A stretch of DNA of 64,000 nt, taken from Luteibacter flocculans. GTDB lineage: Bacteria > Pseudomonadota > Gammaproteobacteria > Xanthomonadales > Rhodanobacteraceae. The notes beneath the pieces were generated by a model. The model searched no databases, was not told the DNA's origin, and saw nothing but the letters and a program-made list of their open reading frames with translations. Made by a program: the position numbers and the translations under genes. The stretch covers positions 2,152,001-2,216,000 of the forward strand of contig NZ_CP063231.1 of assembly GCF_023612255.1 (NCBI RefSeq), read 5' to 3'. Each line of letters starts with the position of its first letter. The stretch's first letter is position 1. This document shows positions 33,103-49,854 of this stretch, in pieces.

Positions 33103-34719
33103 TCAGGCGCGCGGCACCGGCAGAGCGTGACCTGATGCGGGTGACTGCACGACGTCCGGCCGCCAGCCGCATTCCCACGCCTGTCGCCAGACCATGATCA
33201 GCGGACGGCCGGTAGCAGTACTCACGGTGTGATGTCCCGCAGCGAGCGACCAGCGGGTAGCCGCCGTTGCGCCGTCGATCGAGACCGGCGTCTCCTGGAG
33301 ACCATCCGTCGCGACATAGCTGCCGGCCAGTACGACATCGACGTTCGCCGGACCTGCCAGCGCGGGAACGGCGATGCCAGCCATGCGCACCCCTCCGGTA
33401 CCGGGCAGGTAGTGCTGCTCGATGAATGCTTGCGCTGCCGGTGGATACATCCCATCGATCGCGACCATCGTATGGTTTGCGATCAGCCAGCCGGCAATAT
33501 CGTCCGGCATGCGGCCGTACTTGAAACGCTGCCTCGCCAGACTCTCGATCACCAGATAGTAGGGGCGGCGCCTGAAGATGCCTCCGTTCTTCGGGTCCAT
33601 CAGCGTGTCGTTCGGCGTGGTACAGGCAATCACGACACGCAGTTGCGCCTCCTCCGCCGCGAGCTTGTCTCGCCAGAGCGGAGCGTGGGTGAGCACCAGG
33701 CCGAACTCCGTGAGCGCGAGGAGAGAAACGAGCGCGATCTTGCCCTTGGATGGAAGGACGCCGGAGCGGTCGACGAAGCCGATCAGCCAGAGCACCGCCA
33801 TGGGCAGCACGGGGAGAAAATCCTGTTCCGTCGGCAGAGGCCAGACGAACCAGATCATCAGCATGAACAGGAGCGCATGCACGCCGAGGAATGTTCGCCA
33901 TCGCGTGGTCGCATCCTTACCGCGCATCGTCACTACAACGAAGACAAGGATCGCGACAGCGACAAGCGCGTAACCGACGAGATGCCATGGGCGCCCGGGA
34001 CACCCGGTAGGCGCGAGGTTGTACGCGACGATGTCGAACCAGGCGGGGGCACCATCGTGCCGCATCGCCAGCCACAGGACGAACAGGCCCGGCACGGTCA
34101 CCATACCCGCGAGCAGCGCCAAGGCGTTCGCCGCGGTGACGCGGCGATGTATCCACCACCATGTGCCCCAGATCGCCCCCCCAGACGCGAGTGCGACGAC
34201 CGTCAGCGGCAGCGTTTTCTGTGAGACGGACAAGGCTGCGCCGAACAACACGCCACTCGCCAGCCAGCGCCAGGTTCGCCGCTGCGCAAGCGTCATCGTC
34301 GCCATGCCGCAAAGCCACAACGCCGCCCACAGATCGTCGGTGCGGAACTCCCCGAACTTGATGAACAGGATGGGAAGCAGGCCAATGAGGATCACGGTTG
34401 CATCAGCGATACCGTTGGAATACAGCCGGCGCGCGATGCGCCATGTCGCTACCAGCGACAGCATGTACCAGGGCACCACGGCGAGGCGCAGCCACCACAG
34501 AACGTCCGGCCGTTCGCCGAGAATTTTCAGCAGTGCGGCGTAGATCGCACTGAACAACGGACCATGGTTATCGAAAACATCGCGGTAAGGCATCGCGCCC
34601 TGCGCAATGCTCCACGCCACATGCGCATGTTGCGGCTCATCCGAATTCAGCGGATAGGCCGACAACCACAACACGCGAAGAACAAGCAGGACGATAAGCC
34701 CACCCACTCGCATGCTCAT
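33103..34719 (-). CDS. GT39/ArnT-like integral membrane glycosyltransferase
   Basis: About 538 residues, with some ten to twelve hydrophobic helices in the first 400 residues and a soluble periplasmic C-domain. The first extracytoplasmic loop has the acidic pair NSDEPQHAHVAW, as in polyprenyl-phosphate-sugar glycosyltransferases of the GT-C fold (dolichyl-phosphate-mannose mannosyltransferase/ArnT), followed by the HGPLF block. Likely transfers a sugar from an undecaprenyl-phosphate donor to a periplasmic acceptor. ATG 34719 puts the first helix at the N-terminus; a GTG at 34767 would add 16 residues. Neither has a good ribosome site. It stands alone, so the acceptor is unknown. Confidence 0.78.
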   Translation of the reverse strand: MSMRVGGLIVLLVLRVLWLSAYPLNSDEPQHAHVAWSIAQGAMPYRDVFDNHGPLFSAIYAALLKILGERPDVLWWLRLAVVPWYMLSLVATWRIARRLYSNGIADATVILIGLLPILFIKFGEFRTDDLWAALWLCGMATMTLAQRRTWRWLASGVLFGAALSVSQKTLPLTVVALASGGAIWGTWWWIHRRVTAANALALLAGMVTVPGLFVLWLAMRHDGAPAWFDIVAYNLAPTGCPGRPWHLVGYALVAVAILVFVVVTMRGKDATTRWRTFLGVHALLFMLMIWFVWPLPTEQDFLPVLPMAVLWLIGFVDRSGVLPSKGKIALVSLLALTEFGLVLTHAPLWRDKLAAEEAQLRVVIACTTPNDTLMDPKNGGIFRRRPYYLVIESLARQRFKYGRMPDDIAGWLIANHTMVAIDGMYPPAAQAFIEQHYLPGTGGVRMAGIAVPALAGPANVDVVLAGSYVATDGLQETPVSIDGATAATRWSLAAGHHTVSTATGRPLIMVWRQAWECGWRPDVVQSPASGHALPVPRA

Positions 34720-34951
34720 CGCTGCCGTCACACGGCGGGTTCTTGTCGTACACGCCGGTGAGTTCACGAGAGGTCGATCGCGTCGCGCAGGAGGAGTCTG
34801 TGCGCAACGTTAGTGCGGCGTTCTTTCCAACGCCTTTCTCAATGAGCAATGAAAAACTAAGGCACGGCGGAAGCGGTTCCTTTCATAAGTGGGACAGGAG
34901 CGCGGCCGCCGCGAATCGTTCTGTCACATGCCAGAAACCTGCGCGCTTCTC

Positions 34952-35030
34952 CTGCAGGAGCCGCCATGGCGGCGAGGGGAATCTTGTCACCATGCCGCAA
35001 GATTTCCTCGCCGCCATGGCGGCTCCTAAG
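34952..35030. repeat. REP-like inverted pair, GCC-ATG-GC variant
   Basis: CTGCAGGAGCCGCCATGGCG (from 34952) and its inverse CCTCGCCGCCATGGCGGCTC (from 35006) face each other across about 28 bases. The core CCGCCATGGCGG also occurs in the third unit at 28231. The 367-base gap 34720-35086 otherwise contains only divergent upstream regions, with no gene seen. Confidence 0.55.
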
Positions 35031-35086
35031 GGGAGGTAGCTGCTTGCTACTGAGGTTTCACAAGCCGCCGTGACGGCCCCTTCCGA

Positions 35087-36043
35087 TTACTTCACGCCTT
35101 CGTATACGATGCGGGTGAAGAAATCGGGGGCGATCACGAAGTGCCCGTAGATCGCGTCGTACTCGGCCGTGGGCTTCGCGGCGATGACTTCGTCGAGCGA
35201 CTTGCCTGCCTTCTTCATGGCGACCACCTTGTCGCGAATGCCGGCGAGCATGTCGCGAAAATCTTTCAGTTGCTTCTTGCTGCCAACCGGTCCGTGGCCG
35301 GGCACGATGATGACGTTGTCATCGAGGCGCGCGAGGATGGCGTCATCCGCTTTGATCATGCCGTCGATGCCACCGCCATGCTCGTTATCGATGAACGGAT
35401 AGACGCCGTTCCAGAACAGGTCGCCAAGCGAGGCGACGTTGGCCTCCTTGAAAAACACGTAAAGATCGGTGTCGGTATGCGACGGGTCGAGCAGACGCAC
35501 TTCCACGGTCTGGCCCTCGAAATGAAGCGTCTTGTCGGCCTTCAAGACCTCGGTCGGTATCGCGCGCTTGGGCAGCGGCTGGAAGGTGAAATCCCAGTAC
35601 GCCACATGCGTCACTTCCGAAACGCGGCGCACCGTGCCCTGCGTGGCAAGGATCTTGGCGCCGCCCTCACTCACCCACGTGTTGCCGTCCGTGTGATCCC
35701 AGTGGTAGTGCGTATTGATGACGTACTTGATTGGCGTCTTGCCCAGCGCGTCGAGTGCGGCTTCCACGCGTGGTCGCGATACGGCGATACCGGCATCGAC
35801 CAACAGCTTCCCCTGCTTACCGGCCAGCACGGTGATGTTGCCGCCCGAACCCGAAAGCATGCTCAGCGATCCGCGCAGCGCCGTCGTCTCGATCGGGTCC
35901 GTGGCCGCGGCCTGATTGATCTTGATCACCGGGCTCACCGCCTTGGCGGTCTGTGCCCACGCGGCGTTCGTGGCGGACGCGGCGACGACGGTCGCCAGGG
36001 CAAACGAAAGGATCGACCGGTTCGATAACAGGCGGCTTGTCAT
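35087..36043 (-). CDS. Secreted metallo-beta-lactamase-fold hydrolase
   Basis: 318 residues with signal peptide (about 1-30, ending AAWAQ). Zinc motif THYHWDHTDG gives His112, His114, Asp116 and His117; further ligands lie in LLDPSHTDTDLYVFF and IIVPGHGPVG. The pattern fits the quinoprotein-relay/SoxH-like MBL subgroup (periplasmic), not classical carbapenemases. Substrate unknown. Divergent from the TonB receptor behind the Fur-like box, so it may respond to the same signal, though this is inference. Confidence 0.9.
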   Translation of the reverse strand: MTSRLLSNRSILSFALATVVAASATNAAWAQTAKAVSPVIKINQAAATDPIETTALRGSLSMLSGSGGNITVLAGKQGKLLVDAGIAVSRPRVEAALDALGKTPIKYVINTHYHWDHTDGNTWVSEGGAKILATQGTVRRVSEVTHVAYWDFTFQPLPKRAIPTEVLKADKTLHFEGQTVEVRLLDPSHTDTDLYVFFKEANVASLGDLFWNGVYPFIDNEHGGGIDGMIKADDAILARLDDNVIIVPGHGPVGSKKQLKDFRDMLAGIRDKVVAMKKAGKSLDEVIAAKPTAEYDAIYGHFVIAPDFFTRIVYEGVK

Positions 36044-36169
36044 GGCGCACTCTCCTTGGGGCGGCTCGGCGGGCGCCAGCCGGATGCGACATTTAGCGCC
36101 GCCTTTTTCGCAATTTATTGTGGAAATACGCGACCGACGGCGCTTGGCAGCGGCTTAGCTTTACCTGAT

Positions 36170-36188
36170 AATGCGACTGCTTCGCATT
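36170..36188. promoter_or_regulatory. Fur-box-like palindrome
   Basis: AATGCGA-CTGCT-TCGCATT is a 19-bp inverted repeat with perfect 7-bp arms, 32 bases before the receptor ATG. It agrees with the Fur consensus AATGATAATNATTATCATT at about 12 of 19 positions and is preceded by GAT. Iron repression of the siderophore-type receptor downstream is the likely meaning. Confidence 0.5.
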
Positions 36189-36220
36189 TACATCCGCCCG
36201 CGAACCTGCCTGGATCCTCG

Positions 36221-38419
36221 ATGCCCTCCACTGCCCCCACCCTTCGTGCGCTCGTCGGCGCGATCCTCGTCGTGCTCCTGTCTCCCACCGTGCATGCGAC
36301 CGACGATGCCAATCCACAGCAGACGCCCCGCGACAACAGCACCACGCTTTCGGGCATCCAGGTCGAAGCCAACGTGGCGGCGCCCACCGCGGCCTATGCA
36401 GGCGATCAGGTCGCGCGTGGTGGACGGTTTGGCGTGCTGGGTAACCAGGACGCCATGAACGTGCCGTTTGCCAGTACCAGCTACACGGACACGCTTATTC
36501 GCAACCAGCAGGCGCGCACGCTGGGTGACGTGGTGTCGAACGACGCCGCCGTACGCACCGGCTTCGGCTTCGGCAACTTCTCGCAGACCTTCACCATTCG
36601 CGGGTTTCAGCTCTACAGCGACGATATCGCCTTCGATGGCCTGTACGGCTTGCTGCCCCGGCAACTGCTCGCACCGGAGTTGGTCAGCCGCGTGGAAGTA
36701 TTCAAGGGATCCAGCGCGTTTCTCAACGGCATCAGCCCCGGCGGCTCCGGCATCGGCGGTTCGATCAATATCGCACCCAAGCGTGCCGAAGCGCAGCCGA
36801 TCGCACGGGTCGGGCTCGACTGGGGCAGCGACAGTCAGGTGGGTGCGAGCGTCGATCTCGGTCGCCGCTTTGGCGCTGGCGATGCCTTCGGTGTGCGCGT
36901 GAATGCCGTGCATCGCGACGGCAACACCGGCATCGACGGCGAACAGCGCCGCGTCACCGCTGCGTCGGTCGCGTTCGATTACCGCGGCGACGAGCTGCGC
37001 GTCACCACGGATCTCGGCTACCAGAAGCAGGTCATTACCGGCGGCCGTGCCGTCGTCTATGCCAGTGGCCTCACCGCCGTTCCGCGTGCCCCGTCCGCAC
37101 GCACCAACTACGCGCAACCGTGGTCGAACTCCTCGCTGGAGGACACCTTCGGCGTCGTTCGCGCCGAGTACGATTTCGCACCGTGGATCACCGGTTACGT
37201 CGCGGCCGGTGCGCACCACGGCAACGAGTTTGGCGACTACGTGAGCCCTACCCTGCTCGATCGCGCTGGCAACGCCACGGAAACGCGCTTCACGGTGCCG
37301 TACATCGCCGACACCGCCACCGGCGAGGCGGGAGTCAACATGCACTTCGACACCGGCGAGGTCAGCCACCGCGTCAACGTCGGCTTCTCCGCGCTCACGT
37401 TCCGCAAGAAGGCGGCGTACGCCGGCTCACTCGATCCGATCCAGACCAACCTTTACGCGCCGACCTATGTGCCGGTGCCGGCGTTTGCCTATAACGTGGG
37501 CCCGATTTCCGATCCGGGCATTACGGGGCGCACGCAACTGCGCAGCGTCGCGGTGTCGGACACCCTCGGTTTCCTCGACGACAGCCTGGAACTCACCCTC
37601 GGCGCCCGTCGCCAGAAGCTGCACGTGCTCGGTTACAACTACGCGGTGAACGGCGTGGATGGTGCGAAGAATGCCGAGTACGAGCAGTACGCCACCAGCC
37701 CCGTCATCGGTCTGAACTACCGTATCGCCGAGCAATGGTCGGTCTACGCCAACCATATCGAAGCGCTGACGCAGGGCGATCAGGCGCCGGAGACCTTCAA
37801 CAACCGACCGGTGACCAATGCCGGCCAAGTGTTCGCGCCGTACAAGGCGAAGCAGAACGAAGTGGGCGTGAAGTGGGATGCCGGTACCGTCGGCAGCAGC
37901 CTCGCACTGTTCCAGATCAAGCAGCCGAGCGCCTACGTCGACACGTCCAACACGTATGTCGTGGACGGTGAGCAGCGGAATCGCGGCGTCGAATGGAACG
38001 TGTTTGGCCAGCCCACCGCGGGGATACGCGTGCTTGGCGGCCTCAGTTACATCCGGCCCGAACTGGTGAAGACTCAGGGGGGCACGAACGAAGGCAACGA
38101 CGCGATCGGCGTGCCCCGCTTCCAGGCCAATGCCGGCGTGGAGTGGGATCTGCCGAACGTGCCCGACGTCACCCTGAGCGCACGGGCGGTGCATACCGGC
38201 AAGCAGTATCTCGACGCGGCGAACACCCTGAAGGTACCGGCGTGGACGACGTACGATCTCGGTGCGCGCACCACGACGCATCTGGAAGGCGTACCCGTCA
38301 CCTTCCGGCTCACGGTGCAGAACGTGGCGAACAAGGGTTACTGGGCCTCGGCCAACGGCGGTTACCTGACCCAGGGCACGCCGCGCACGTTCTATGTGTC
38401 GGCCTCGTTCGACCTTTAG
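36221..38419 (+). CDS. TonB-dependent siderophore receptor
   Basis: 732 residues from ATG 36221. Signal peptide ending SPTVHAT; TonB-box-like TTLSGIQVEA; plug with QARTLGDVVSNDAAVRTG, FTIRGF and RVEVFKGSSAFLNGI, the wording typical of FhuA/FpvA-like siderophore receptors; C-terminal strand GTPRTFYVSASFDL ends in an aromatic-x-Leu signal. The Fur-like box just upstream supports a role in iron uptake. No siderophore biosynthesis genes are nearby, so it may take up a xenosiderophore. Confidence 0.92.
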   Translation: MPSTAPTLRALVGAILVVLLSPTVHATDDANPQQTPRDNSTTLSGIQVEANVAAPTAAYAGDQVARGGRFGVLGNQDAMNVPFASTSYTDTLIRNQQARTLGDVVSNDAAVRTGFGFGNFSQTFTIRGFQLYSDDIAFDGLYGLLPRQLLAPELVSRVEVFKGSSAFLNGISPGGSGIGGSINIAPKRAEAQPIARVGLDWGSDSQVGASVDLGRRFGAGDAFGVRVNAVHRDGNTGIDGEQRRVTAASVAFDYRGDELRVTTDLGYQKQVITGGRAVVYASGLTAVPRAPSARTNYAQPWSNSSLEDTFGVVRAEYDFAPWITGYVAAGAHHGNEFGDYVSPTLLDRAGNATETRFTVPYIADTATGEAGVNMHFDTGEVSHRVNVGFSALTFRKKAAYAGSLDPIQTNLYAPTYVPVPAFAYNVGPISDPGITGRTQLRSVAVSDTLGFLDDSLELTLGARRQKLHVLGYNYAVNGVDGAKNAEYEQYATSPVIGLNYRIAEQWSVYANHIEALTQGDQAPETFNNRPVTNAGQVFAPYKAKQNEVGVKWDAGTVGSSLALFQIKQPSAYVDTSNTYVVDGEQRNRGVEWNVFGQPTAGIRVLGGLSYIRPELVKTQGGTNEGNDAIGVPRFQANAGVEWDLPNVPDVTLSARAVHTGKQYLDAANTLKVPAWTTYDLGARTTTHLEGVPVTFRLTVQNVANKGYWASANGGYLTQGTPRTFYVSASFDL

Positions 38420-38422
38420 CGG

Positions 38423-40195
38423 CTAGGCCACGGACGGCTGTGCGCACTCGTGCGCGTGGCCGTTCGCGACCACGCGATTGCGTCCAGCGCGCTTGGCCGC
38501 GTAGAGCGATGCATCGGCTTCGCGGCATACACGCGGCAAGGTATAGCCGTGGTCTTCGGTGCCTGCGACCCCCACGCTGGCGGAAAACACGATGGTGTAC
38601 CCGTCCTCCACGGCGGGCGACAGCTCGATGGCCCGCCGGATGCGCTCCGCGATCGCTACGCCCTCGTCCAGCGGACAGCCCGGTAGGAACACCCCGAATT
38701 CCTCTCCACCGAGCCGTCCGAACAAGTCCGCGGGGCGCAACTGCTGCTGGCAAAGGGTCGCCGCGTGCCGAAGCACGACGTCGCCCATGGCATGACCATA
38801 GGTGTCGTTGACCTGCTTGAAGTGGTCGAGGTCGATCAACAGCAGACACGCGGGTGCGTGACGCTTTTCCATCGATCGCAGCACGCGCTCCGCTTCGTTC
38901 ATGAAATGCTGGCGATTGAAGATTCCCGTGAGGCCGTCGTAACGGGACAGCTTGCGGAAGCGGAGCTGCGACCGCTTGGTGCGGAAGAGCCAGAAGATCA
39001 CCGAGGCGAGGAACATCGACAGCAGGCCGATGTAGAGCCGCCCCGTTTCCAGCGCTTTGGTTTCCAGTGCCTTCTGCAGGCGCAGGATGTTGTTCTGCTT
39101 GGCCAGCTGTTCGGATTCCAGTTTCTGGACCACGACGTGCTGCTGGCTGAGCTGGAAGGCAAGGCTGCGCGCCGTGAGATCGGTGAGATATCCCTTGTCG
39201 GCAGCGGTATAGCGCTCGTAATAGTTGAGCGCGGCGGCGCTGTGTCCACTGGCCTTCTCGATCCGGTACAGCACGCCGTAAGCATCCCTCAGCCACTCGC
39301 TCAGGTCGGACGGATCGCTCATGGCCACGGCGGCTAGCGCCGCCTTCCGGGCTTCGTCGTTCCTGTCGAGTTTTTCGTAGATCCTGGCACGTTGCACTTG
39401 CGACGCCAGCATGTGCGGATAGTACGCATTGGTGCGGATACTGCCGCCGATGTGGTCAAGCAGATCGAGCGCTTTGCGCGGCTGGTTCTCGTCGAGCAGC
39501 CGGTCGATGAGAACCAGCCGCATGGTGTTGGCGAGCACCGGCTGGGCCGACGACACGCAGGTCTCGATGGCCTCTGTCAGGTCGGTGCTTGTCGACGAAA
39601 GATGGCCGCGCGTATCGAGCGCGGCGACGCGCAAGGAGCGTGGATAACAGAGATCGCCGCCCGGCGGCATGGATTCCTCCATCATCGCCGCGTAGCGCAG
39701 GGCGAGGTCCGCCTGGCCTGCGAGATTCAGCATCTGCGACAGATTCATCAGCAGCATCGACCGGGCGAGCGGGTCAGTGACCTTGTCCAGGCCCACGGTG
39801 ACCTGGTTCGCGAGCGCGAACGCTTCCGCATAGCGACGGTTGGCGGCGAAGTTGCTCAGCAACAGCGCCGATGCCTTGGCCGCCAGTGTGGCGTCGCCGG
39901 AATGCGCCACGATGTCCTGCAGCGCCGTCTGTGACTTGACGTAATCGCCCGAGAACATGGTCTGCCAGGCGTCGAGATAACGCAGGTACCACGTCGTGGA
40001 CGCGTCCATCGGCGGGGACACGCGGTGGATTTCCTCAAGCCGGCGTACGAACTCGGCATGATCTTTCGTGCGCAGGCTTTCGGTCTGGGCGAGAAATGCC
40101 GCCGGGTCGTCGATCGAAGTCGCGGTACGCTCTGCGGCTTCCACGGCGCCGCAGGCGAGGACGAGGCAGGCAAACCATGACCTGAAACGTTTCAT
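38423..40195 (-). CDS. Diguanylate cyclase with periplasmic TPR-like sensor
   Basis: 590 residues from ATG 40195. Signal peptide/anchor at 1-20, a long helical TPR-like sensor region (about 30-370), a coiled coil, one membrane helix (LLSMFLASVIFWLF) and a GGDEF domain. The active-site motif is GGEEF (residues 496-500), with the inhibitory site RxxD at Arg487-Asp490 exactly five residues before it. It should therefore make c-di-GMP and be product-inhibited. It starts 29 bases after the stop of the borosin precursor gene, in the same orientation, so the two are probably cotranscribed. Confidence 0.92.
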   Translation of the reverse strand: MKRFRSWFACLVLACGAVEAAERTATSIDDPAAFLAQTESLRTKDHAEFVRRLEEIHRVSPPMDASTTWYLRYLDAWQTMFSGDYVKSQTALQDIVAHSGDATLAAKASALLLSNFAANRRYAEAFALANQVTVGLDKVTDPLARSMLLMNLSQMLNLAGQADLALRYAAMMEESMPPGGDLCYPRSLRVAALDTRGHLSSTSTDLTEAIETCVSSAQPVLANTMRLVLIDRLLDENQPRKALDLLDHIGGSIRTNAYYPHMLASQVQRARIYEKLDRNDEARKAALAAVAMSDPSDLSEWLRDAYGVLYRIEKASGHSAAALNYYERYTAADKGYLTDLTARSLAFQLSQQHVVVQKLESEQLAKQNNILRLQKALETKALETGRLYIGLLSMFLASVIFWLFRTKRSQLRFRKLSRYDGLTGIFNRQHFMNEAERVLRSMEKRHAPACLLLIDLDHFKQVNDTYGHAMGDVVLRHAATLCQQQLRPADLFGRLGGEEFGVFLPGCPLDEGVAIAERIRRAIELSPAVEDGYTIVFSASVGVAGTEDHGYTLPRVCREADASLYAAKRAGRNRVVANGHAHECAQPSVA

Positions 40196-40224
40196 CCCTG
40201 GTCGTCCCCCGTCCCGGGCCTCGA

Positions 40225-40557
40225 CTATGGCTCGGCGTGGCCGGGCGCTGGCGGCGCTTGCGGCTCGTCGTCGCAATCGTCGTCACCTTGGTCGTCGTTA
40301 TCGTCGCAATCGTCGTCCCCGTCGTCATCCCCGTCATCGTCATCCTCGTGGCAGGGGGTCTGGGAAATCTGCGTCGTGTGCATGGTGATGCGGCCGAATT
40401 CACCGTCCAAGTGCGAGCTGTCACCCAGGGCAGCGGCCTTCACCAATGCCTCCGTCGCACCGGCCTTGGCGAGCAACTCGGCCAGTTCTTCGGCCGACGC
40501 ATCGCGTAACGCGGCGTCGCGCCCGATGGCCTCCAGCAGTTCGATCGTGTCACGCAT
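40225..40557 (-). CDS. Probable borosin precursor peptide with Asp/Cys-rich tail
   Basis: 110 residues from ATG 40557 (AGGGG ribosome site). Residues 1-55 are helical, with the pattern LLEAIGRDAALRDAS ... LLAKAGATEALVKAAALGD, closely resembling the borosin-binding domain of split-borosin precursors such as Shewanella SonA (LG-x-DA-x-L ... GL ... AL-x-x-GD). Residues 56-69 (RITMHTTQISQTPC) are the likely methylated core. The tail (70-97) is almost all Asp with two Cys and a few Gly, ending EPQAPPAPGHAEP. The peptide N-methyltransferase gene lies immediately upstream. No signal peptide. Function as substrate is inferred from context and the leader pattern. Confidence 0.75.
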   Translation of the reverse strand: MRDTIELLEAIGRDAALRDASAEELAELLAKAGATEALVKAAALGDSSHLDGEFGRITMHTTQISQTPCHEDDDDGDDDGDDDCDDNDDQGDDDCDDEPQAPPAPGHAEP

Positions 40558-40636
40558 GTTGTTCCCCTGTTTTCCGATAACGGTCGATGTCAGGGCCGAG
40601 GCCCCGGAAACCGTGACGGCAGCCGCCGCCGTTTCT

Positions 40637-41473
40637 TTACCGTCCGGCGTCAGCCTCAAGCGCATCGATCGCGGCCAGGCGCTCCTGTATCGCCGGATTC
40701 GGCTTCAGGGCCACGGCGGGAGGCAGCACCACGGTTTCCACCGCCGTCAGAGGATCCCCCGGCAGGTCGCGCAGACGAATGCGGCGCACCCCCGGTGTCT
40801 GGATGGGCAGCGTCGCGCCCCGGTAGACGATGATCTCGTGATCCAACGGGTAGTCCTGGGCCAGCACATCCACCAATACCTGTCGGTAGGCCGGCCCGGT
40901 CGCGAAGCGAGCCAGGGATCGGTCGCCCACCACGCCGACCTGCCACAGCACCAGGTACGCACTGGGATCGAGCCGACGCTCGTAGAACAGTAGCTGGCTG
41001 GCTTCGAAGTGCTGGCATCCATAGCGGCCCGGATCGATGCCCAGGTCGGCATACAGGCAATCCTCTGCCGAGATTCCGGGCTCCATCCGCGCCTCGAAAC
41101 CCTCGTCCCGCGCCTTCTCGATGGCCTTGTGCGGCGACCACGCGAAGATGCCAGGGTGCCCGTAGAACACGCCGCACACGCGCTTACCCGCGCGCACCTC
41201 GTCCAGCATCAGGTCGACCCATTGCCGGTACGTCCGCATGCGCGATTTTCCTTCGCGGTAGTACGGCTGCAGACTGCGCACGTCACCATGCATGCGCCGG
41301 AGCCAGGCTTCCACCACGGCGTCGGAGAGTGCCGCGAACACGACGTCCGCCTGGACGATGTAGCTGTGTGCCAGGGGCGTGAGGTGCGAGCCAAGGGTCA
41401 TGCCCATGCCGACGCACGCCAGGCTGCCGCGGCGCGGGATGGGCTCGGAGAAATGTGAAGAAGGTGTGTTCAT
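40637..41473 (-). CDS. Borosin-type peptide backbone alpha-N-methyltransferase (split SonM-like)
   Basis: 278 residues from ATG 41473; ATG 41485 or 41509 are alternatives. It belongs to the tetrapyrrole-methylase fold (SAM-dependent). Motifs SLACVGMGMTLGSHLTPLA, YYREGKSRMRTYRQWVDLM, VFYGHPGIFAWSPHKAIEKA, MEPGISAEDCLYADLGIDP and LVLWQVGVVGD match the OphMA/SonM peptide N-methyltransferases far better than the CobA/CysG porphyrin enzymes; the Arg/Tyr cluster in the second motif corresponds to the catalytic residues. Unlike fungal OphMA, no core peptide is fused at the C-terminus (it ends ALEADAGR), so the substrate must be separate; the neighbouring 110-residue gene fits. It follows the exporter outer-membrane gene by 44 bases. 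Confidence 0.85.
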   Translation of the reverse strand: MNTPSSHFSEPIPRRGSLACVGMGMTLGSHLTPLAHSYIVQADVVFAALSDAVVEAWLRRMHGDVRSLQPYYREGKSRMRTYRQWVDLMLDEVRAGKRVCGVFYGHPGIFAWSPHKAIEKARDEGFEARMEPGISAEDCLYADLGIDPGRYGCQHFEASQLLFYERRLDPSAYLVLWQVGVVGDRSLARFATGPAYRQVLVDVLAQDYPLDHEIIVYRGATLPIQTPGVRRIRLRDLPGDPLTAVETVVLPPAVALKPNPAIQERLAAIDALEADAGR

Positions 41474-41517
41474 GGGGCGGATCATAGGCGATGACGCAGT
41501 CCGCCACATGAGCCCGG

Positions 41518-43020
41518 TCAATTAGGCGTGTCGCCGCCCCCGATAGCCTTGCACACCGCCACGTATCGCACCGAAACCGCCGCCGTGCTCTGTGCCAGCT
41601 CGCGCTGCGCGTCGAGCAGGGTCCGCTGCGCGTCCAGCTCATCGATATAGCTGACGTCGCCGGCCCGATGGCGCGACACCGCCATATCGTACGCGTCGCG
41701 CGACAGACGCTCGCGTTCGACGAGTCGCGCATGCCGCTGGCGTTCGGCGGCGTACCCGTTCAATGCGGTATCCACATCCGTCCACGCCTGCAGGACGGTG
41801 TTCTGATACGCCACCGCCGCCTCCTGCTGTTCCAGCCGGCGCAGGGTGACGACGCTGCGTCGGCGGCCCATGTCGAATACCGGGAGGTCCAGTCGCGGCC
41901 CTACGGTCCACTGGCGGCTACCCCAGTCGCCAAGTTCCCCGGATCTGAGCGACTCGAAGGCGAACGAACCGCCTAGCGTGATGCGCGGGTACAGGTCGGC
42001 CACGGCAACGCCCGTGTTCGCCGTAGCAGCGTGCAGACGCGCTTCCGCCTGGCGGATGTCGGGCCGACGGCGTGCAAGCTCGGAAGGCACGCCCAGCGCC
42101 AGATCGGGCCAGGCCGGCGTGGGCGCTTCGTCATGCGGGGGAGCCAGCATGGTCTGGAGACCTCCCGGCGGCTGCCCGAGCAACAACGAGAGTCCATCGA
42201 TCGCGCTGGCCTCCTGGTCCAGCAAGGCCGGCAGGCGCGACTCGAGATCGGCCAGCAGCGCCTGCTGCCGCGTCGCATCGAGGTCGCTGGCCATGCCGCC
42301 GTCCGCGCGTGCTTTCAGCAGGGCGAAGCGCTCGGTGGCGGCATCGATGTCGGCCCGCGTGAGGGCGACCTGCCGCTGTACGCCGCGCAGTTCCATATAG
42401 CGTCGTGCCACCTCGGCCGCCACATCGAGTCGAACGCCGTCGAAGAGTGCCCCGGACACGTCCACCTGCGCGTCGGCTGCTTCGACCGAACGCCGTACGC
42501 GTCCCCAGAAGTCGAGTTCCCAGGAAGCGTCGAAGCCCGCCTCGTACACGTTGAACGGTTGGCTCAGGAGGGCAAGCACGGCATCGCGACTGCTCGCCGG
42601 CGCAAGCACATCGATGGTTCGGGTGGTCGCGCCGTTTTCGCTCGGGCGTTGGCGCTGCGCGCTGGCACCCAGGTTTACTTGTGGACCGTGCTGTGCCGCG
42701 ACGGCGTGGCGCTGCGCACGACTCTGGGCAAAACGTAGCGCCGCCGTCTGCAGATCGGGGTTGGCAGCGGCGGCGCGCGCTTCCAGTGCGTCGAGCACCG
42801 GATCGCCGAACGCCTTCCACCAATCGCTCGACGGTTCGGCGTGCTCGCCGGACCATGCCGCGTCGCGCAGCGACGGGTCGCCGGCGCGCAGGGTCGTCCA
42901 GTCCGCAGGCGGCTTGGTCGTCGGTGTCGGGCGGACGAAATCCGGGCCGACGGCGCAGCCGCCGAGCGTGCCCATCGCCAGGACGAGAAGCGGCAGAAAG
43001 CGAGGCGTTGGCGTGCGCAT
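41518..43020 (-). CDS. NodT-family outer-membrane efflux lipoprotein of ABC exporter
   Basis: 500 residues from ATG 43020. Lipobox LGGC followed by AVGPDFVRP; two OEP repeats with the typical ARRRPDIRQAEARLHAATANTGVAVADLYP and the channel-forming helices. Starts 14 bases after the second ABC permease stop, same strand. Likely the outer-membrane exit for the HlyD/ABC system encoded upstream; it is the last exporter gene before the borosin methyltransferase. Confidence 0.92.
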   Translation of the reverse strand: MRTPTPRFLPLLVLAMGTLGGCAVGPDFVRPTPTTKPPADWTTLRAGDPSLRDAAWSGEHAEPSSDWWKAFGDPVLDALEARAAAANPDLQTAALRFAQSRAQRHAVAAQHGPQVNLGASAQRQRPSENGATTRTIDVLAPASSRDAVLALLSQPFNVYEAGFDASWELDFWGRVRRSVEAADAQVDVSGALFDGVRLDVAAEVARRYMELRGVQRQVALTRADIDAATERFALLKARADGGMASDLDATRQQALLADLESRLPALLDQEASAIDGLSLLLGQPPGGLQTMLAPPHDEAPTPAWPDLALGVPSELARRRPDIRQAEARLHAATANTGVAVADLYPRITLGGSFAFESLRSGELGDWGSRQWTVGPRLDLPVFDMGRRRSVVTLRRLEQQEAAVAYQNTVLQAWTDVDTALNGYAAERQRHARLVERERLSRDAYDMAVSRHRAGDVSYIDELDAQRTLLDAQRELAQSTAAVSVRYVAVCKAIGGGDTPN

Positions 43021-43034
43021 GAGGCGTACCGGAT

Positions 43035-44162
43035 TCAGGTGAGTCGATGACGGAAGAGCCACGCCGCGGTGGGCAGGGTCACAGCGGAAATGGCAAGCAA
43101 GGGCAAGATGTCGGCGAGCACCGCGTGGAGGCCCACGCCTTCGAGGTAGACACGATGAACCATGTGGATGCCATAACGCGCGGGATCGATCATCGTGAAC
43201 CACTGCATGACCACGGGCATGTTGGCGATCGGTGTGGTCATGCCCGACAGCAGGACGAGCGGCATCATCAGCACGAACGTGTAGAGCATCGCCTGCTGCA
43301 TGCTCACCGCCAGTGCGGAAATGGCAAGCCCGATGCCCACGGCCGCCAAAGTGAACACCAACAGCGCCGTATAAAGCGTCACTAGTGAACCCGCCGGCGG
43401 GATGCGGAACCACAGGCTGGTGATGAGCACGACGAGGCTGGCCTGCGCGAGACCGACGATGATCGACGGCACCGATTTCCCGATCATGATCTCCGTCGGC
43501 GTACACGGCGTCACCAGCAACTGATCGAACGTGCCCTGCTCCCGTTCGCGGGCGACCGACAGCGCGGTCAGCATGAGCGTCTGCAGCATGCTCAGGTTCG
43601 CGATCATGGCGGTCATCATGAACCAGCGCGTTTCGAGATTCGGGTTGTACCAACTACGCACGTCCACGGTAAGCGGAACCTCGCCACCACCGTGTTCCTT
43701 CCGCCAATCGGCATTGAAGCGGCTCACGATCGTGCCCAGGTACCCCGCCGCCGTCCCTGCCGAGACCGAATTGCGCGCGTCGAGCACGAGTTGCACCGGC
43801 GTGTCCTCGCCGTTGGAAAGACGGCTTTCGAAGCGCGGCGGGATGTGTACGACGAACAGCACGTCGCCCGCATTGACGATGGGTGGGATGTCGCTCTCGT
43901 TCCGGAGTGTGGCCGCGCGCTGGAAGGCGCCGGAGCTTTCGATCCGGGCGACCAGCGCCGTGGCCGCCTCGCCGTGATCCTGATCGAGCAGCGCATAAGG
44001 GGCCTGCCGCAGGTCGAGCGTCGCCGCGTAGCCAAAAATCAACGACTGCACCAGCACCGGTGCGAACAACACCATGCGGCCCGCCGGATCCTTAAGGATC
44101 ACCTTAAGCTCCTTCCGGCAGAGGTTGAGCACGCGACGCAGGAAGGCGACAAGGCTGTTCAT
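43035..44162 (-). CDS. ABC-2 type permease (YbhR-like)
   Basis: 375 residues. N-terminal LCRKELKVILKDPAGRMVLFAP and a first membrane helix, a large periplasmic loop (about 50-170), then five to six helices with the ABC-2 motif VAREREQGTFDQLLVTP. It overlaps the previous permease by ATGA. One of two half-permeases served by the fused ATPase; family members export drugs or lipids. Confidence 0.9.
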   Translation of the reverse strand: MNSLVAFLRRVLNLCRKELKVILKDPAGRMVLFAPVLVQSLIFGYAATLDLRQAPYALLDQDHGEAATALVARIESSGAFQRAATLRNESDIPPIVNAGDVLFVVHIPPRFESRLSNGEDTPVQLVLDARNSVSAGTAAGYLGTIVSRFNADWRKEHGGGEVPLTVDVRSWYNPNLETRWFMMTAMIANLSMLQTLMLTALSVAREREQGTFDQLLVTPCTPTEIMIGKSVPSIIVGLAQASLVVLITSLWFRIPPAGSLVTLYTALLVFTLAAVGIGLAISALAVSMQQAMLYTFVLMMPLVLLSGMTTPIANMPVVMQWFTMIDPARYGIHMVHRVYLEGVGLHAVLADILPLLAISAVTLPTAAWLFRHRLT

Positions 44163-45298
44163 CCGATGCGCTTCCGGGTCTTCAGGCGTGCCGCCGCCAG
44201 GAGCACGACCGCGTAGCCGAACAGGATGGCGCAATTCCTCAGGACCATGGACCACAGGTTGCCGGCCAGGAAGAGACTTTTCAGCGCTTCCAAGTAATAC
44301 GTCGCCGGAAGCGCGTGCCCCACCACCTGCACCGGCCAGGGCATGTTGCGCAGGTCGTAGATGAAACCGGAAAGCATGAGCGCGGGAAGAAAACTGGCGA
44401 TCAACGCGATCTGGCTGGCATTGAACTGATTCTTGGTGACCGCCGAAATCAGTAGACCGATGCCGAGCGCAACGAACATGTAGAACACCGACAGAAGCAC
44501 GATCAGCAGTAGCGATCCGCGCAGCGGCACCTCGAACAGGAAGCGCGCCGCGAGCAGACACATCGCCAGCCCGATCAGGCCGACCACGAAGTACGGAATG
44601 ATTTTCGCCAGCAGGATTTCCAGCGGCCGTACCGGCGTGACGAACAGGGCTTCGAGCGTGCCGCGTTCCCACTCCCGCGCCATGACCAACGCCGTAAGGA
44701 ACGCGCCCACCAGGGTCGTTATGAGTACCAGCAGTCCGGGTACGAGGAACCACGTGCTGGTGTTGGCCTCGTTGAACCAGAGGCGCTGCTCGAGATGCAC
44801 CATGCCGATCGGCGTGGCGGTGTCACCCGCACGCTGTTCCTGCTCGGCCGCCCACGCCTGTAACGACGACTCCACGTAGCCCTGCACCGTGCGTGCCGTA
44901 TTGGCATCCGCACCGTGCAGGATCAATTGCAAGTGCGCGTCGCCGAGGTGCAGGCGTCGCGAGAAGTCCGAGGGAATACGCAGGATCGCGTTTACCTCGC
45001 GATCGGCCATCAGCGCCTCGGCGGCGTGCATGTCGTGAACCGGCTTCGGATCGAGATACGGCGACAGGCGCATGCCGGCCATCACGTCGTTCGCCATCGG
45101 CGACGGGTCTTCGAGCACGACAGCGACGGGGGCATGCTTCACGTCGAACGAAAGGCCATAGCCAAAGATCAGGATCAGCACGCCTGGCAGGGCGATACCC
45201 ACCATGAGATTGCTCCGGTCCCGCAGCAACTGCTTGACCTCCTTGCGTACGAGCGCGATCAACCGCCGCGCAAAACCGCTTCTGTTCGCCGTGCTCAT
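44159..45298 (-). CDS. ABC-2 type permease (YbhS-like)
   Basis: 379 residues with the same topology as its downstream partner: ALVRKEVKQLLRDRSNLMVGIALPG, a periplasmic domain, then MAREWERGTLEALFVTPVRPLEIL and helices to the end. Its ATG overlaps the ATPase stop (ATGA), and its own stop overlaps the next permease start. The pair forms the membrane channel of the exporter. Confidence 0.91.
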   Translation of the reverse strand: MSTANRSGFARRLIALVRKEVKQLLRDRSNLMVGIALPGVLILIFGYGLSFDVKHAPVAVVLEDPSPMANDVMAGMRLSPYLDPKPVHDMHAAEALMADREVNAILRIPSDFSRRLHLGDAHLQLILHGADANTARTVQGYVESSLQAWAAEQEQRAGDTATPIGMVHLEQRLWFNEANTSTWFLVPGLLVLITTLVGAFLTALVMAREWERGTLEALFVTPVRPLEILLAKIIPYFVVGLIGLAMCLLAARFLFEVPLRGSLLLIVLLSVFYMFVALGIGLLISAVTKNQFNASQIALIASFLPALMLSGFIYDLRNMPWPVQVVGHALPATYYLEALKSLFLAGNLWSMVLRNCAILFGYAVVLLAAARLKTRKRIG

Positions 45299-47079
45299 GC
45301 GGCATCCCTGGCGTTGCCGCCTGTATGCTGTCGGTGCTGCCGCACGATGCCGATGAACGCCTGCTCCATGTCGAAGGGGGCCTCGTCGGTCTCCCCGGCC
45401 TGCCGACGGATGGCTGCGGGTGTGCCGAGCGCAAGCACCTGCCCTGCGTCCTGGATCACGACGCGATCGCAGTACTCGGCTTCCTCCATGAAGTGCGTGG
45501 TAATGATGATGGTCGTGCCGCTTTCGGCCAGCGCCGTGATGCGTCGCCAGAACTCGCGGCGAGCCAGCGGATCCGCACCGCTCGTCGGTTCGTCGAGAAA
45601 CAGAATGTCCGGCTCGTGCAGGAGGCCGGTCGCCATCGCCAGCCGCTGCCTGAATCCACCGGGCAGGCTACCCGCCGGCGCACCGCCGGACCGTTCCAGC
45701 TCGAATTGCGCCTTTACCGCATGCATGCGCTCGCGCAGCCGGGCGCCGTGCAAACCATAGGTGCCACCGAAGAACGAAAGGTTTTCGTCCACGCTGAGGC
45801 TGCCGTACAGCGCGAACTTCTGCGACACGTAGCCGACCTGCTGGCGAGCGTGCGCGCGTGCGCGTCGAAGGTCGTATCCGGCGACGTGCAGGCTGCCCGA
45901 ACTGGCCGGAAGCAACCCGCACAGCATGCGGAACGTCGTCGTCTTGCCGGCACCGTTCGGGCCAAGCAGGCCGAAGATCTCACCGCGCTCCACGCTGAAA
46001 CTCGTGCGATCCACAGCGATAAAGTCCCCGAATCGGCGGACCAGATCCTTGACCTCGATGACGGGCCCGTCATGCGCCCGCTGCGCCGCTCCCGACGTAC
46101 TGGTGGAGGCAGCCGCGGCGAAATCGCGCTGTACCTTCGAACGCAATGCGAGCATCACCCCGTCCTCCAGGGTGGCTGCCACCGGTACGCTGCTCGCCGC
46201 ACCGAGCAGCGCGGCGAGCCCAGAATCGCCCTGCGACACGGCATGTCGTGCACGCACGACATGCACTTTTCCGCCGCGCGGCACGGCATCGATCGTGTCC
46301 TCGTCGTCGAGCAGCCGGGCCTGGAGCGAACGCGCCGCCGTCCCTGCCGCGGGCGTAGCAGCGAAACACAAGCCGTCCGCCGTCGCGCGGATCGTCGATG
46401 GGGGGCCGTCCGCCAGCAGACGACCTTCATGCAGGATGGCCACATGCTCGCAACGCTCCGCCTCGTCCATGTAGGACGTGCTGACCAGCACGCTGAGCCG
46501 CTCGTCGGCGACGAGCTGCTCGAGGATTTCCCACAGCTCACGGCGAGACAGCGGATCGACACCGACGGTCGGTTCGTCCAGAAGCAGCAGTGCGGGCGAA
46601 CGCACCAGCGTGCAGGCCAGGCCGAGCTTCTGCTTCATGCCGCCGGACAGCTTGCCTGCGGGACGGTCGGTAAATCGCCCCAGGTCGGTCATCGCCATGA
46701 GACGTGCATAGCGATCGCGACGCGTGGCCGCATCGACGCCGTGAAGGTCGGCATAGAGATCGAGGTTCTCCTGAACGCTCAAGTCTTCATACAAGCCGAA
46801 GCGCTGCGGCATGTAACTGATGCTGTCCTGCACGGCCTGCGGATCGTGGGCGACATCGATGCCCAGCACGGTCATCGTTCCCGCATCGGCCACCATCAAC
46901 CCGGCGGCAAGACGCAGCAAGGTCGTCTTGCCCGCGCCGTCAGGTCCTACAAGTGCGGTGATCGTGCCCTTTGCCACGGCGAGCGAAACGTCGTCCAGCG
47001 CTTGCACCGCCTGCCCTGTGCGGCTCGCGGCGAAACGTTTGCCGATACCGCGGGCCACCAGCGCAAGTTCGTCGGTCAT
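45295..47079 (-). CDS. Fused two-NBD ABC ATPase (YbhF-like)
   Basis: 594 residues with two nucleotide-binding domains in one chain. NBD1 has Walker A GPDGAGKTT (Asp in place of the usual Asn), signature LSGGMKQKL and Walker B LLLLDEPTVGVDP. NBD2 has GPNGAGKTT, the altered signature LPGGFRQRL and ILFLDEPTSGADP. This build is typical of the HlyD-YbhF-YbhS-YbhR exporters. ATG 47079 overlaps the adaptor stop by ATGA; longer frames are unsupported. Confidence 0.92.
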   Translation of the reverse strand: MTDELALVARGIGKRFAASRTGQAVQALDDVSLAVAKGTITALVGPDGAGKTTLLRLAAGLMVADAGTMTVLGIDVAHDPQAVQDSISYMPQRFGLYEDLSVQENLDLYADLHGVDAATRRDRYARLMAMTDLGRFTDRPAGKLSGGMKQKLGLACTLVRSPALLLLDEPTVGVDPLSRRELWEILEQLVADERLSVLVSTSYMDEAERCEHVAILHEGRLLADGPPSTIRATADGLCFAATPAAGTAARSLQARLLDDEDTIDAVPRGGKVHVVRARHAVSQGDSGLAALLGAASSVPVAATLEDGVMLALRSKVQRDFAAAASTSTSGAAQRAHDGPVIEVKDLVRRFGDFIAVDRTSFSVERGEIFGLLGPNGAGKTTTFRMLCGLLPASSGSLHVAGYDLRRARAHARQQVGYVSQKFALYGSLSVDENLSFFGGTYGLHGARLRERMHAVKAQFELERSGGAPAGSLPGGFRQRLAMATGLLHEPDILFLDEPTSGADPLARREFWRRITALAESGTTIIITTHFMEEAEYCDRVVIQDAGQVLALGTPAAIRRQAGETDEAPFDMEQAFIGIVRQHRQHTGGNARDAA

Positions 47080-48089
47080 GGCCTTGCAGCCACCGTACCG
47101 GGCAGCTCGACGGTCGCCGGCATGCCGAGGCGAAGGCGATCGTCGGGATCGTCGACGTTGATCCGCACCTCGTAGACCAGGCTGGTGCGAAGGTCCTCGG
47201 TTTCCACGTTCTTGGGCGTGAACTCGGCCACCGAGGCGATGTAGCCGACGCGACCCTCGATCGGGTGAGCCGGTGCGCTGTCGGTGGTGACGCGAGCCGC
47301 CTGGCCGGGCTTGATGCGGCCGAGATTCGTCTCCGACACGTAGGCACGGATCCACTTCGGGTGAAGCAGCGCCAAGGTGTACACGGGACGCTGCGGCGAG
47401 GCCATGTCACCCGGCTCCACGAGGCGGCTGCGTATCACGGCGTCGACGGGTGCCTTCAATTCGGCATCCGCGAGTTGCTGCGCGACGACCGCGCGTTCCG
47501 CTGCCGCGGCGTCGCGTTGCGCGCGCGCCTGGTCGATGTCTTCCTTGCGCGCTCCTACCACGGAGAGATCGTGCGCCTTGCGTTGCGCGTCGAGCTTGGC
47601 ATCGGCGGCGGCGCTCGCGGCGGCGGCCTGGTCCAGTTCCTCGTGGCTCACCGCGCGGCCGCGCGTGTCGCGACTGATCTCCCGGAGTCGATCGAGCGTC
47701 TGCCGCGCCATGCGTGCATCGGCCTGCGCGGCGCGCACGTTCGCGTCGGCCTGGGCGATCTCCTGGGGACGATTGCCGGCTTCCAGCCGCTTGAGGAGCT
47801 GATCCTGCGCACCGAGCTGTGCCTGCGCCTGAGCGAGGTGCAAGGCGAGCTTGGTGGTGTCGAGTGTGGCAAGCACCTGGCCGCTGACGACCCGATCCCC
47901 TTCCTCCACGCGCATCTGCGCGACGCGTTCGCTACCGTTGAAGGCGAGCGAGACCTGGCGGATATCGACGTTACCGTGCAGGACGATCGGTTCATCGCCA
48001 TGCGGCCGCAGCAGCCACCAGGCGATGCCCGCGGCGACCGCCAGCGTCACCGCAGCGACAGCGAGGAAACGAGGCGTCGGTCTGCGCAT
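47076..48089 (-). CDS. HlyD-family adaptor of ABC exporter (YbhG-like)
   Basis: 337 residues, AGGGG ribosome site. A single N-terminal membrane anchor (FLAVAAVTLAVAAGIAWWLL), barrel-sandwich (GNVDIRQVSLAFNGSERVAQMRVEEGDRV), a long Ala/Gln/Arg-rich coiled coil (about 75-190) and a C-terminal beta-barrel ending PGTVAARP. First gene of the exporter run; divergent from a TetR regulator with a palindrome between them. Confidence 0.92.
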   Translation of the reverse strand: MRRPTPRFLAVAAVTLAVAAGIAWWLLRPHGDEPIVLHGNVDIRQVSLAFNGSERVAQMRVEEGDRVVSGQVLATLDTTKLALHLAQAQAQLGAQDQLLKRLEAGNRPQEIAQADANVRAAQADARMARQTLDRLREISRDTRGRAVSHEELDQAAAASAAADAKLDAQRKAHDLSVVGARKEDIDQARAQRDAAAAERAVVAQQLADAELKAPVDAVIRSRLVEPGDMASPQRPVYTLALLHPKWIRAYVSETNLGRIKPGQAARVTTDSAPAHPIEGRVGYIASVAEFTPKNVETEDLRTSLVYEVRINVDDPDDRLRLGMPATVELPGTVAARP

Positions 48090-48144
48090 GAAGGGCCCCT
48101 GAGCCGCGAGAGTTCCCGCAGTCTAGGGTGCGGGCAGGGTCGAA

Positions 48145-48160
48145 TCAAATACAAATTTGA
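48145..48160. promoter_or_regulatory. Inverted repeat in TetR/exporter intergenic region
   Basis: TCAAAT-ACAA-ATTTGA, perfect 6-bp arms in the only AT-rich part of the 107-base gap between the divergent TetR and HlyD genes. It is a good candidate operator for the TetR protein on both promoters. Confidence 0.5.
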
Positions 48161-48196
48161 GTTACATTTTGCCGCACCTCGTACCCCGGTTCGCTC

Positions 48197-48862
48197 ATGT
48201 CCGCTCGTCTACCCGTGTCCCCGACGCCCCAGCGGAGTCCCCGCCAGGACGGCGAGACGACCCGCGCCACCCTGCTCGACGTCGCCGGACGGCTGTTCGC
48301 AGAACATGGCTACCTCGGTACGTCGAGCAAGGACATCTGTCTTCGCGCAGGCGTGAACATGGCCGCGGTGAACTACCACTTCGGCAGTCGGGACGGGCTT
48401 TATGCCGCCGTGCTCGTCGAGGCGCACCGGCAAGTTATCAGCCAGGAGGAACTGCGCGCCCTGGTCGCCTCGGACCAGCCTGCGAAAGACAGGGTGCGCG
48501 GCCTCATGGCACACCTCGTCGCGCAGATGGGGCAGGACGAAACCTCGTGGGGCTTCAAGGTCGTGCTGCGCGAGGTCATGGCGCCCTCGCCGCTCGCTTC
48601 GACGCTGGTCGACCAAGCAATCGTGCCGAAAGCGGGCATCGTGGCCGGGCTCATCGCCGACTGCATGGGTCTGCCGCACGACCACCCGAAGGTGCAGCGC
48701 GGCCTGATGATGACGGTGGTGCCGTGCATCGTGCTGTTGCTCGCGCCGCCCGGCCTCCGCGAGAAGGCGCTGCCTGCCTTGCAGCCCGGCTCCCCCGACC
48801 TGGCCGATCACATGGCGACCTTTGCACTGGCGGGGTTGGACGCGCTCGCGGACGCCCCCTGA
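48197..48862 (+). CDS. TetR-family regulator (CecR/YbiH-like, DUF1956 C-domain)
   Basis: 221 residues. N-terminal helix-turn-helix: RATLLDVAGRLFAEHGYLGTSSKDICLRAGVNMAAVNYHFGSRDGLYAAV; the FGS-x-DGLY wording and C-terminal domain are those of the CecR group that controls ybh-type ABC exporters in enterobacteria. Divergent from the HlyD gene here, the same arrangement. Probably represses the exporter and, if transcription reads through, the borosin genes behind it. Confidence 0.92.
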   Translation: MSARLPVSPTPQRSPRQDGETTRATLLDVAGRLFAEHGYLGTSSKDICLRAGVNMAAVNYHFGSRDGLYAAVLVEAHRQVISQEELRALVASDQPAKDRVRGLMAHLVAQMGQDETSWGFKVVLREVMAPSPLASTLVDQAIVPKAGIVAGLIADCMGLPHDHPKVQRGLMMTVVPCIVLLLAPPGLREKALPALQPGSPDLADHMATFALAGLDALADAP

Positions 48863-48992
48863 GCGCGCGATGGGCGGTGCTGGCGTCGTCGAGCAGCTGA
48901 GGCCGCCACCGCGCCGGAAGCGCCCGAGCCGCTCAACGAACGGTGCTTGGTACCATGCAGCCCTTTGCGCCGTCGGCGCCCTGGAAAACCTC

Positions 48993-49835: not shown

Positions 49836-49854
49836 CAACGCGGCTGCATACGCT

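What the first reader, a model, noticed from the sequence alone, without database searches (positions are those of the whole stretch)
40225..41473. Split borosin pathway: discrete peptide N-methyltransferase and its precursor
The protein at 40637-41473 has the sequence blocks of OphMA/SonM peptide backbone N-methyltransferases (GHPGIFAWSPH, PGISAEDCLYADLG, LWQVGVVG) but no fused core. The next gene encodes 110 residues whose first half copies the borosin-binding-domain pattern (AIGRDAALR ... AALGD). Split borosins are known from Shewanella (SonM/SonA), but their natural products and roles are almost unknown, and this precursor's tail is unusual.
Basis: partly seen in the sequence, partly recalled or inferred. 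Interest (0 to 1): 0.9.

Follow-up and report, generated by a model that had tools for sequence, protein, structure and literature searches.

The report
Borosin peptide genes with cyclase partner
Bacterial genes for making a backbone-methylated peptide sit, in many related species, beside a gene for a membrane protein that should make the messenger c-di-GMP, which suggests that these peptides, whose role is almost unknown, are signals that control it.

Summary
41473-40637(-) encodes a SonM-like borosin N-methyltransferase (SonM E 5.7e-75, precorrin methylase 5.6e-4; four mutated SonM active-site residues conserved). 40557-40225(-) encodes a discrete precursor with a SonA-type binding domain: a precursor profile without SonA has SonA chains as its top seven PDB hits, E about 2e-8 to 5e-8.

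The larger result was missed. The next gene, 40195-38423(-), encodes a helical sensor, a transmembrane helix and an intact GGEEF diguanylate cyclase domain. Of 128 methyltransferase hits with enough flank, 119 have a same-strand GGDEF gene within 3.6 kb (chance about 3%), SonM-SonA included. In the window's family, 53 genomes have methyltransferase and sensor, 18 neither, none only one. Seven of 13 sensor loci without methyltransferase still have a precursor directly upstream. Acidic precursor tails occur mostly directly before the cyclase gene (84/95 against 2/29 in the window-like group).

So this is a split borosin wired to c-di-GMP. The peptide as ligand of the sensor is the likeliest mechanism; it is untested.

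The parts
40637..41473 (-). split borosin alpha-N-methyltransferase, 278 aa, SonM-like; Y72, R78, Y82, Y104 align with SonM Y58, R67, Y71, Y93
40225..40557 (-). discrete borosin precursor, 110 aa
40396..40557 (-). borosin binding domain, residues 1-54, five predicted helices
40348..40392 (-). putative linker and core, residues 56-70 (many relatives: PQxxQxPGHE; here TTQISQTPCH); methylation sites not known
   Evidence: inference from SonA, methylated at 63 and 65
40228..40347 (-). Asp-rich C-terminal tail, residues 71-110, no secondary structure in the model
38423..40195 (-). sensor diguanylate cyclase, 590 aa; ATG 29 bases after the precursor stop
39191..40105 (-). helical (TPR-like) solenoid, residues 31-335, with cysteines C183 and C213 invariant in 72 aligned relatives; predicted periplasmic
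   Evidence: (TPR matches below cut-off); topology inferred by eye from a signal-peptide-like start and a transmembrane segment
38984..39037 (-). transmembrane segment, about residues 387-404, inside the long helix 319-418
   Evidence: sequence by inspection, model
38474..38944 (-). GGDEF domain, residues 418-574, GGEEF active site 496-500 and RPAD inhibitory site 487-490

Best explanation
This is a three-gene unit: a split borosin methyltransferase, its precursor, and a membrane diguanylate cyclase that most likely receives the peptide. Shown by comparison: enzyme and precursor are SonM/SonA-type, and precursor and cyclase are evolutionary partners. Inferred: the precursor docks through its binding domain, residues in the 56-70 region are N-methylated on the backbone, an unidentified peptidase frees the peptide, and it reaches the periplasm (helped by N-methylation or by an unknown exporter). 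There it binds the helical solenoid, and the signal passes down the long helix to change GGDEF dimerisation and c-di-GMP output. Rough confidence: enzyme and precursor assignment 0.95; functional partnership with the cyclase 0.85; peptide as ligand of the solenoid 0.55.
For: Enzyme and precursor. Partnership: 119 of 128 flanked methyltransferase hits have a same-strand GGDEF gene within 3.6 kb, against 3% of random positions in the window's genome with a wider radius. The 15 Shewanella regions that I picked all have it, including the one whose methyltransferase equals the SonM query. Gene order changes while the three genes stay together: enzyme-precursor-cyclase in most; precursor-cyclase-enzyme in, for example, L076, L117, L123, L126, L132 and L177. 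Family f1 (71 genomes, E 1e-10): 53 with both, 0 with one only, 18 with neither. Seven of 13 orphan sensor loci have a precursor directly upstream and no methyltransferase in the stretch fetched. In the window-like group acidic tails mark the precursor just before the cyclase, 84/95 against 2/29; in the distant group 15/32 against 0/10. In ten genomes with separate units, 19 of 19 units have a sensor closer to one in another genome than to their own paralogue (tandem units left out). The cyclase looks active: GGEEF in 83 of 83, with RxxD in 78.
Against: No binding, methylation or c-di-GMP data. Nine of the 128 hits lack the GGDEF gene (L059, L072, L138, L139, L141, L142, L143, L178, L180), as do L209-L213; of the most diverged enzymes (under 40% identity) 3 of 3 lack it. 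Six of 13 orphan sensor loci showed no precursor. No exporter or peptidase was seen to be conserved; the HlyD, ABC-2 and outer-membrane genes upstream in the window have no same-strand counterpart in the related loci. The covariation of core with sensor is not specific to the core: the binding domain tracks the sensor even more. Related sequences are not independent, so P values overstate. SonA-group precursors keep the cyclase but have no acidic tail. The sample is weighted to Rhodanobacteraceae.
Confidence: 0.6

Rival explanations
1. An ordinary split borosin whose product acts outside the cell (antibiotic, metal binder or similar). The cyclase is only co-regulated, or sets when the product is made, and does not sense it.
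For: Some enzyme loci have precursors and no cyclase nearby. There is no direct evidence of binding.
Against: Precursor-cyclase pairs persist without the enzyme gene, the sensor was not found in any of the 18 f1 genomes that lack the enzyme, and tail type goes with adjacency to the cyclase. No c-di-GMP riboswitch or other Rfam match at gathering score in 34000-50000.
Confidence: 0.25
2. The unprocessed or methylated precursor acts inside the cell as a regulatory partner of the cyclase, with the acidic tail as contact; there is no released signal.
For: Acidic tail tied to the adjacent cyclase; no conserved exporter seen; the whole precursor, not the core alone, tracks the sensor; precursors have no signal peptide by eye.
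Against: The sensor domain is predicted periplasmic, with two invariant cysteines. SonA-type precursors have no tail, yet keep the cyclase.
Confidence: 0.15
3. The window's upstream HlyD-ABC-ABC2-ABC2-OMF genes (48089-41518) export the product, so that the unit is part of a larger secretion cluster.
For: Only 44 bases separate the outer-membrane factor stop from the methyltransferase start, on the same strand.
Against: In the related loci over 5 kb, the HlyD and two ABC-2 queries found nothing and the outer-membrane factor only two weak opposite-strand matches (33-34%, L011 and L074). The ABC-ATPase query of that call was out of frame and tested nothing.
Confidence: 0.08
4. The enzyme is a tetrapyrrole methylase and the neighbour an unrelated acidic protein.
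For: Pfam names only TP_methylase above cut-off.
Against: Scores, catalytic residues and precursor profile.
Confidence: 0.01

Closest known systems
SonM/SonA, type IV split borosin of Shewanella oneidensis (PMC8429565, parts 1-3 of 10 read)
   Same: Discrete methyltransferase (120 of 260 aligned residues identical), discrete precursor with the same binding domain, the four mutated active-site residues kept and, as found here, the same kind of cyclase ORF directly after sonA
   Different: The window's core region is polar (TTQISQT, where SonA has YLVIS) and an acidic tail of about 40 residues follows; SonA has 71 residues and no such tail
OphMA-type fused borosins
   Same: Methyltransferase domain (E 5e-52 to 3e-47)
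   Different: Core and clasp fused to the enzyme; the solved ones are fungal
RRNPP peptide receptors of Firmicutes (recalled, no call)
   Same: Helical repeat domain that reads a small ribosomal peptide (here only proposed)
   Different: RRNPP proteins are cytosolic and mostly act on DNA or partner proteins; here the repeat domain is predicted periplasmic and feeds a diguanylate cyclase
Membrane diguanylate cyclases with periplasmic input such as YfiN/TpbB (GGDEF hits; regulation recalled)
   Same: Periplasmic input, transmembrane helix, GGDEF output
   Different: Different sensor; no borosin genes beside it that I know of (not searched)

Membership tests
Split borosin | alpha-N-methyltransferase homologous to SonM/OphMA with the active-site residues | tested here: met
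Split borosin | precursor encoded separately, with borosin binding domain | tested here: met
Split borosin | backbone N-methylation of the precursor | not testable with these tools
   needs mass spectrometry
Split borosin | assignment to published type IV or V-X | not testable with these tools
   three look-ups of the classification papers by recalled DOI: not held
Tetrapyrrole methylase (CysG, Cob/Cbi) | closer to these enzymes than to borosin enzymes; passes their family cut-offs | tested here: not met
   best NCBIfam matches YabN 30.9 bits (cut-off 525) and CysG 19.2 bits (cut-off 400). The Pfam superfamily TP_methylase is met (72 bits, cut-off 27.8)
Diguanylate cyclase | GGDEF domain with intact active site | tested here: met
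   (2e-42)
Diguanylate cyclase | makes c-di-GMP | not testable with these tools
   no assay
RRNPP peptide receptor | tandem TPR peptide-binding domain | tested here: inconclusive
   TPR_12 at 17.6 bits, below its cut-off of 30.1; helical solenoid in the model; the 50 fold hits listed match by their GGDEF domain
RRNPP peptide receptor | cytosolic receptor acting on DNA or phosphatase targets | tested here: not met
   transmembrane segment and GGDEF output

The most novel reading that the evidence does not exclude
Bacterial split borosins, SonM/SonA included, are ligands of a dedicated family of periplasmic-solenoid diguanylate cyclases: N-methylated ribosomal peptides that set c-di-GMP in Gram-negative bacteria, with arrays of variant peptides (11 precursors in L208) and peptide-receptor pairs elsewhere in the genome served by a methyltransferase in trans.
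Probability: 0.5. Interest if true: 0.93.

Novelty: new variant of a known kind. Interest (0 to 1): 0.82.

Why it matters
The role of bacterial borosins is almost unknown, and so is what many sensor diguanylate cyclases respond to (both from general knowledge). A conserved pairing of the two, present even at the best-studied split borosin, would bear on both questions. It can be tested in Shewanella oneidensis MR-1, where purified enzyme and precursor and their structures already exist (PMC8429565).

Tried and rejected
Exporter as the conserved partner: rejected, with the caveat that two of its nine queries (ABC-ATPase and GGDEF) were out of frame; the GGDEF query was redone in frame, the ABC-ATPase query was not.

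Core-receptor coevolution: core distances follow the sensor and not the GGDEF domain (partial r 0.38 against -0.04; 0.34 against 0.03 with equal numbers of columns). The control failed: the binding domain also follows the sensor (0.52 against 0.21 for GGDEF; window-like group 0.64 against 0.07). This supports co-inheritance of precursor and sensor, not ligand specificity.

Unit inheritance: Mantel r 0.90 is mostly shared ancestry. For tandem loci L014, L027, L101 and L102 the script gave both enzymes the same cyclase (distance 0.0), so these are not used.

Aspartyl peptidase (shewasin type, recalled) as maturation enzyme: no PF00026 match in the window's genome, but no control genome rang either, so uninformative. 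Rfam scan of 34000-50000: nothing. Promoter-like sites in 38200-41800: none; terminator-like sites 3 against 1.8 by chance. VIA-align not available.

Literature: searches for borosin with diguanylate cyclase, with c-di-GMP and with Rhodanobacter, for backbone N-methyltransferase with GGDEF, for RiPP with diguanylate cyclase and peptide signal, and for periplasmic tetratricopeptide cyclases with peptide ligand gave no paper; a search for SO1478, SO1479 or SO1480 gave only PMC8429565. The genome-mining papers that I looked up by recalled DOI are not held, so they may already note this neighbour. Seen: PMC8429565 parts 1-3 of 10 and find passages; PMC11395268 part 1 of 5 and find passages; PMC11285071 find passages only; the rest as listings.

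Dropped rows: 15 of 143 methyltransferase hits for short flanks (several of them do have a cyclase); short hits and hits with stops; short loci returned by the genome search left out as duplicates of longer ones. 24 of the 36 orphan sensors were not looked at beyond their coordinates or share a fetched stretch.

Full report
Observation. Both ORFs exist where stated. The 278-aa protein (41473-40637, minus) matches SonM at 5.7e-75 and fused fungal borosin enzymes at 5e-52 to 3e-47. The only tetrapyrrole enzyme among the 26 PDB sequences listed, precorrin-2 C20-methyltransferase, has E 5.6e-4, and the NCBIfam models matched stay far below their cut-offs. SonM Y58, R67, Y71 and Y93, which Miller et al. 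mutated (PMC8429565; I read parts 1-3 of 10, and find passages), are present in all 119 enzymes aligned, the window's among them, where they are Y72, R78, Y82 and Y104.

The precursor. Pfam, NCBIfam and a single-sequence PDB search show nothing close to the 110-aa protein. A profile of 68 precursors from the window and named genome contigs, holding no SonA, has as its top seven PDB hits chains of SonM-SonA entries, at 1.7e-8 to 5.3e-8. A profile of 104 precursors from loci whose enzyme is at least 60% identical to the window's finds SonA at 1.5e-7 among 4448 ORFs of 58 distant loci. The members of both sets had been gathered with a profile that had SonA among its eight seeds. The model shows five helices in residues 2-54 and no structure after them. 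Its three best fold hits are SonA chains, with weak E-values of 2.9 to 7.

The missed gene. The next gene starts 29 bases after the precursor stop (40195-38423, minus). It encodes a signal-peptide-like start, a helical solenoid (residues 31-335), a transmembrane segment in a long helix, and a GGDEF domain (2e-42) with GGEEF and an RPAD inhibitory site. The model is confident (mean pLDDT 89.9). Two cysteines of the solenoid, C183 and C213, are invariant in the 72 aligned sequences, which fits a disulphide in the periplasm (inference). The TPR matches are below their cut-offs, so I write TPR-like.

How general it is. One search pooled 143 methyltransferase hits; 128 have at least 3.0 kb upstream and 3.6 kb downstream. 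Same-strand GGDEF within 3.6 kb, by identity to the window enzyme: 70% or more, 56 of 58; 60-70%, 16 of 16; 50-60%, 23 of 23; 45-50%, 19 of 19; 40-45%, 5 of 9; 30-40%, 0 of 3. A precursor was found by profile for 108 of 128, and both for 104. A random same-strand position in the window's genome (24 GGDEF genes) would be counted in about 3% of cases even with a wider radius. The sample is weighted to Rhodanobacteraceae (75 loci). In the genus that holds SonM (taken as Shewanella because one genome is 100% identical to the query), 67 of 77 genomes have the enzyme, with 92 matches. I picked 15 of these regions, and all 15 have the cyclase downstream. At the SonM-identical enzyme the cyclase ORF begins at the base after the sonA stop.

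Is it hitch-hiking? Three observations argue against this. Gene order differs between lineages while the three genes stay together. In family f1 of the 119 genomes searched twice, 53 have enzyme and sensor, 18 have neither and none has only one, at E 1e-10; over all 119 it is 67 both, 8 enzyme only (all more diverged), 1 sensor only and 43 neither. Of 124 sensor matches in f1, 86 lie within 3.6 kb of a same-strand enzyme gene. Of the 36 without an enzyme within 8 kb, I looked at 12 fetched loci plus the window genome's own: 7 of these 13 loci have a binding-domain precursor directly upstream of the cyclase and no enzyme gene in the 8-11 kb held. So the cyclase is tied to the precursor itself.

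The tail. Among 124 unique precursors of the window-like group, 84 of 95 whose stop lies between 150 bases after and 450 bases before an inferred cyclase start have at least eight D/E after residue 62, against 2 of 29 others (the sequences are related, so the Fisher value of 3e-16 overstates). Among 42 distant ones it is 15 of 32 against 0 of 10. Several of the 11 exceptions are the first of two precursors. L208 shows the contrast within one locus: one enzyme, ten short-tailed precursors, then one acidic-tailed precursor and the cyclase. In the SonA group the tail is absent although the cyclase is present, so the tail is not needed for the partnership everywhere. I do not know what it does.

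Covariation. Precursor cores follow the sensor rather than the GGDEF domain of the same protein, but so does the binding domain. This fits co-inheritance of precursor and sensor and does not by itself show that the core is a ligand. In ten genomes with separate units, 19 of 19 units have a sensor closer to one in another genome than to their own paralogue.

Mechanism and novelty. The likeliest reading is a peptide-to-c-di-GMP circuit, given in Best explanation with the inferred steps marked. Known already: borosin enzymes and precursors, and diguanylate cyclases with sensor domains. In the held library no paper joins the two by the terms that I searched. The borosin genome-mining papers that I looked up are not held, so priority is uncertain. 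Lee 2024 on the peptidase shewasin A is recalled, not read.

Organism. G000 is unnamed. Its congener G021 has a contig of the same length as a contig of Luteibacter jiangsuensis (1235193 bases), so the window is probably from Luteibacter (inference).

Noticed in passing
L208 4590-8180 (G009:C1:1818000-1831000): Tandem array of 11 borosin precursors after one methyltransferase; cores vary around PQxxQ, and only the last copy, before the cyclase, has an acidic tail.
   Followed up: partly
L100 3803-5506 (own genome C1:2449802-2451505): A third copy of the solenoid cyclase in the window's genome with neither enzyme nor detected precursor nearby.
   Followed up: partly
L099 9049-10212 (own genome C1:355000-373000): Second complete borosin unit in the same genome: enzyme 60% identical, precursor core TYYSIQLD with a mixed-charge tail.
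   Followed up: yes
L010 and L058: Contigs labelled Candidatus Eremiobacteraeota carry Dyella-like borosin units; probably a contaminated bin (inference).
   Followed up: no
window 36056-38419: TonB-dependent receptor gene with an 85% and an 80% identical counterpart about 5-6 kb downstream of the enzyme in two Luteibacter loci (L006, L048), while the genes upstream of the enzyme differ.
   Followed up: no
L138, L139, L141, L142, L143, L178, L180: Distant borosin-type methyltransferases (33-43% identity) without a GGDEF neighbour; L138 and L178 have short precursors without an acidic tail.
   Followed up: no
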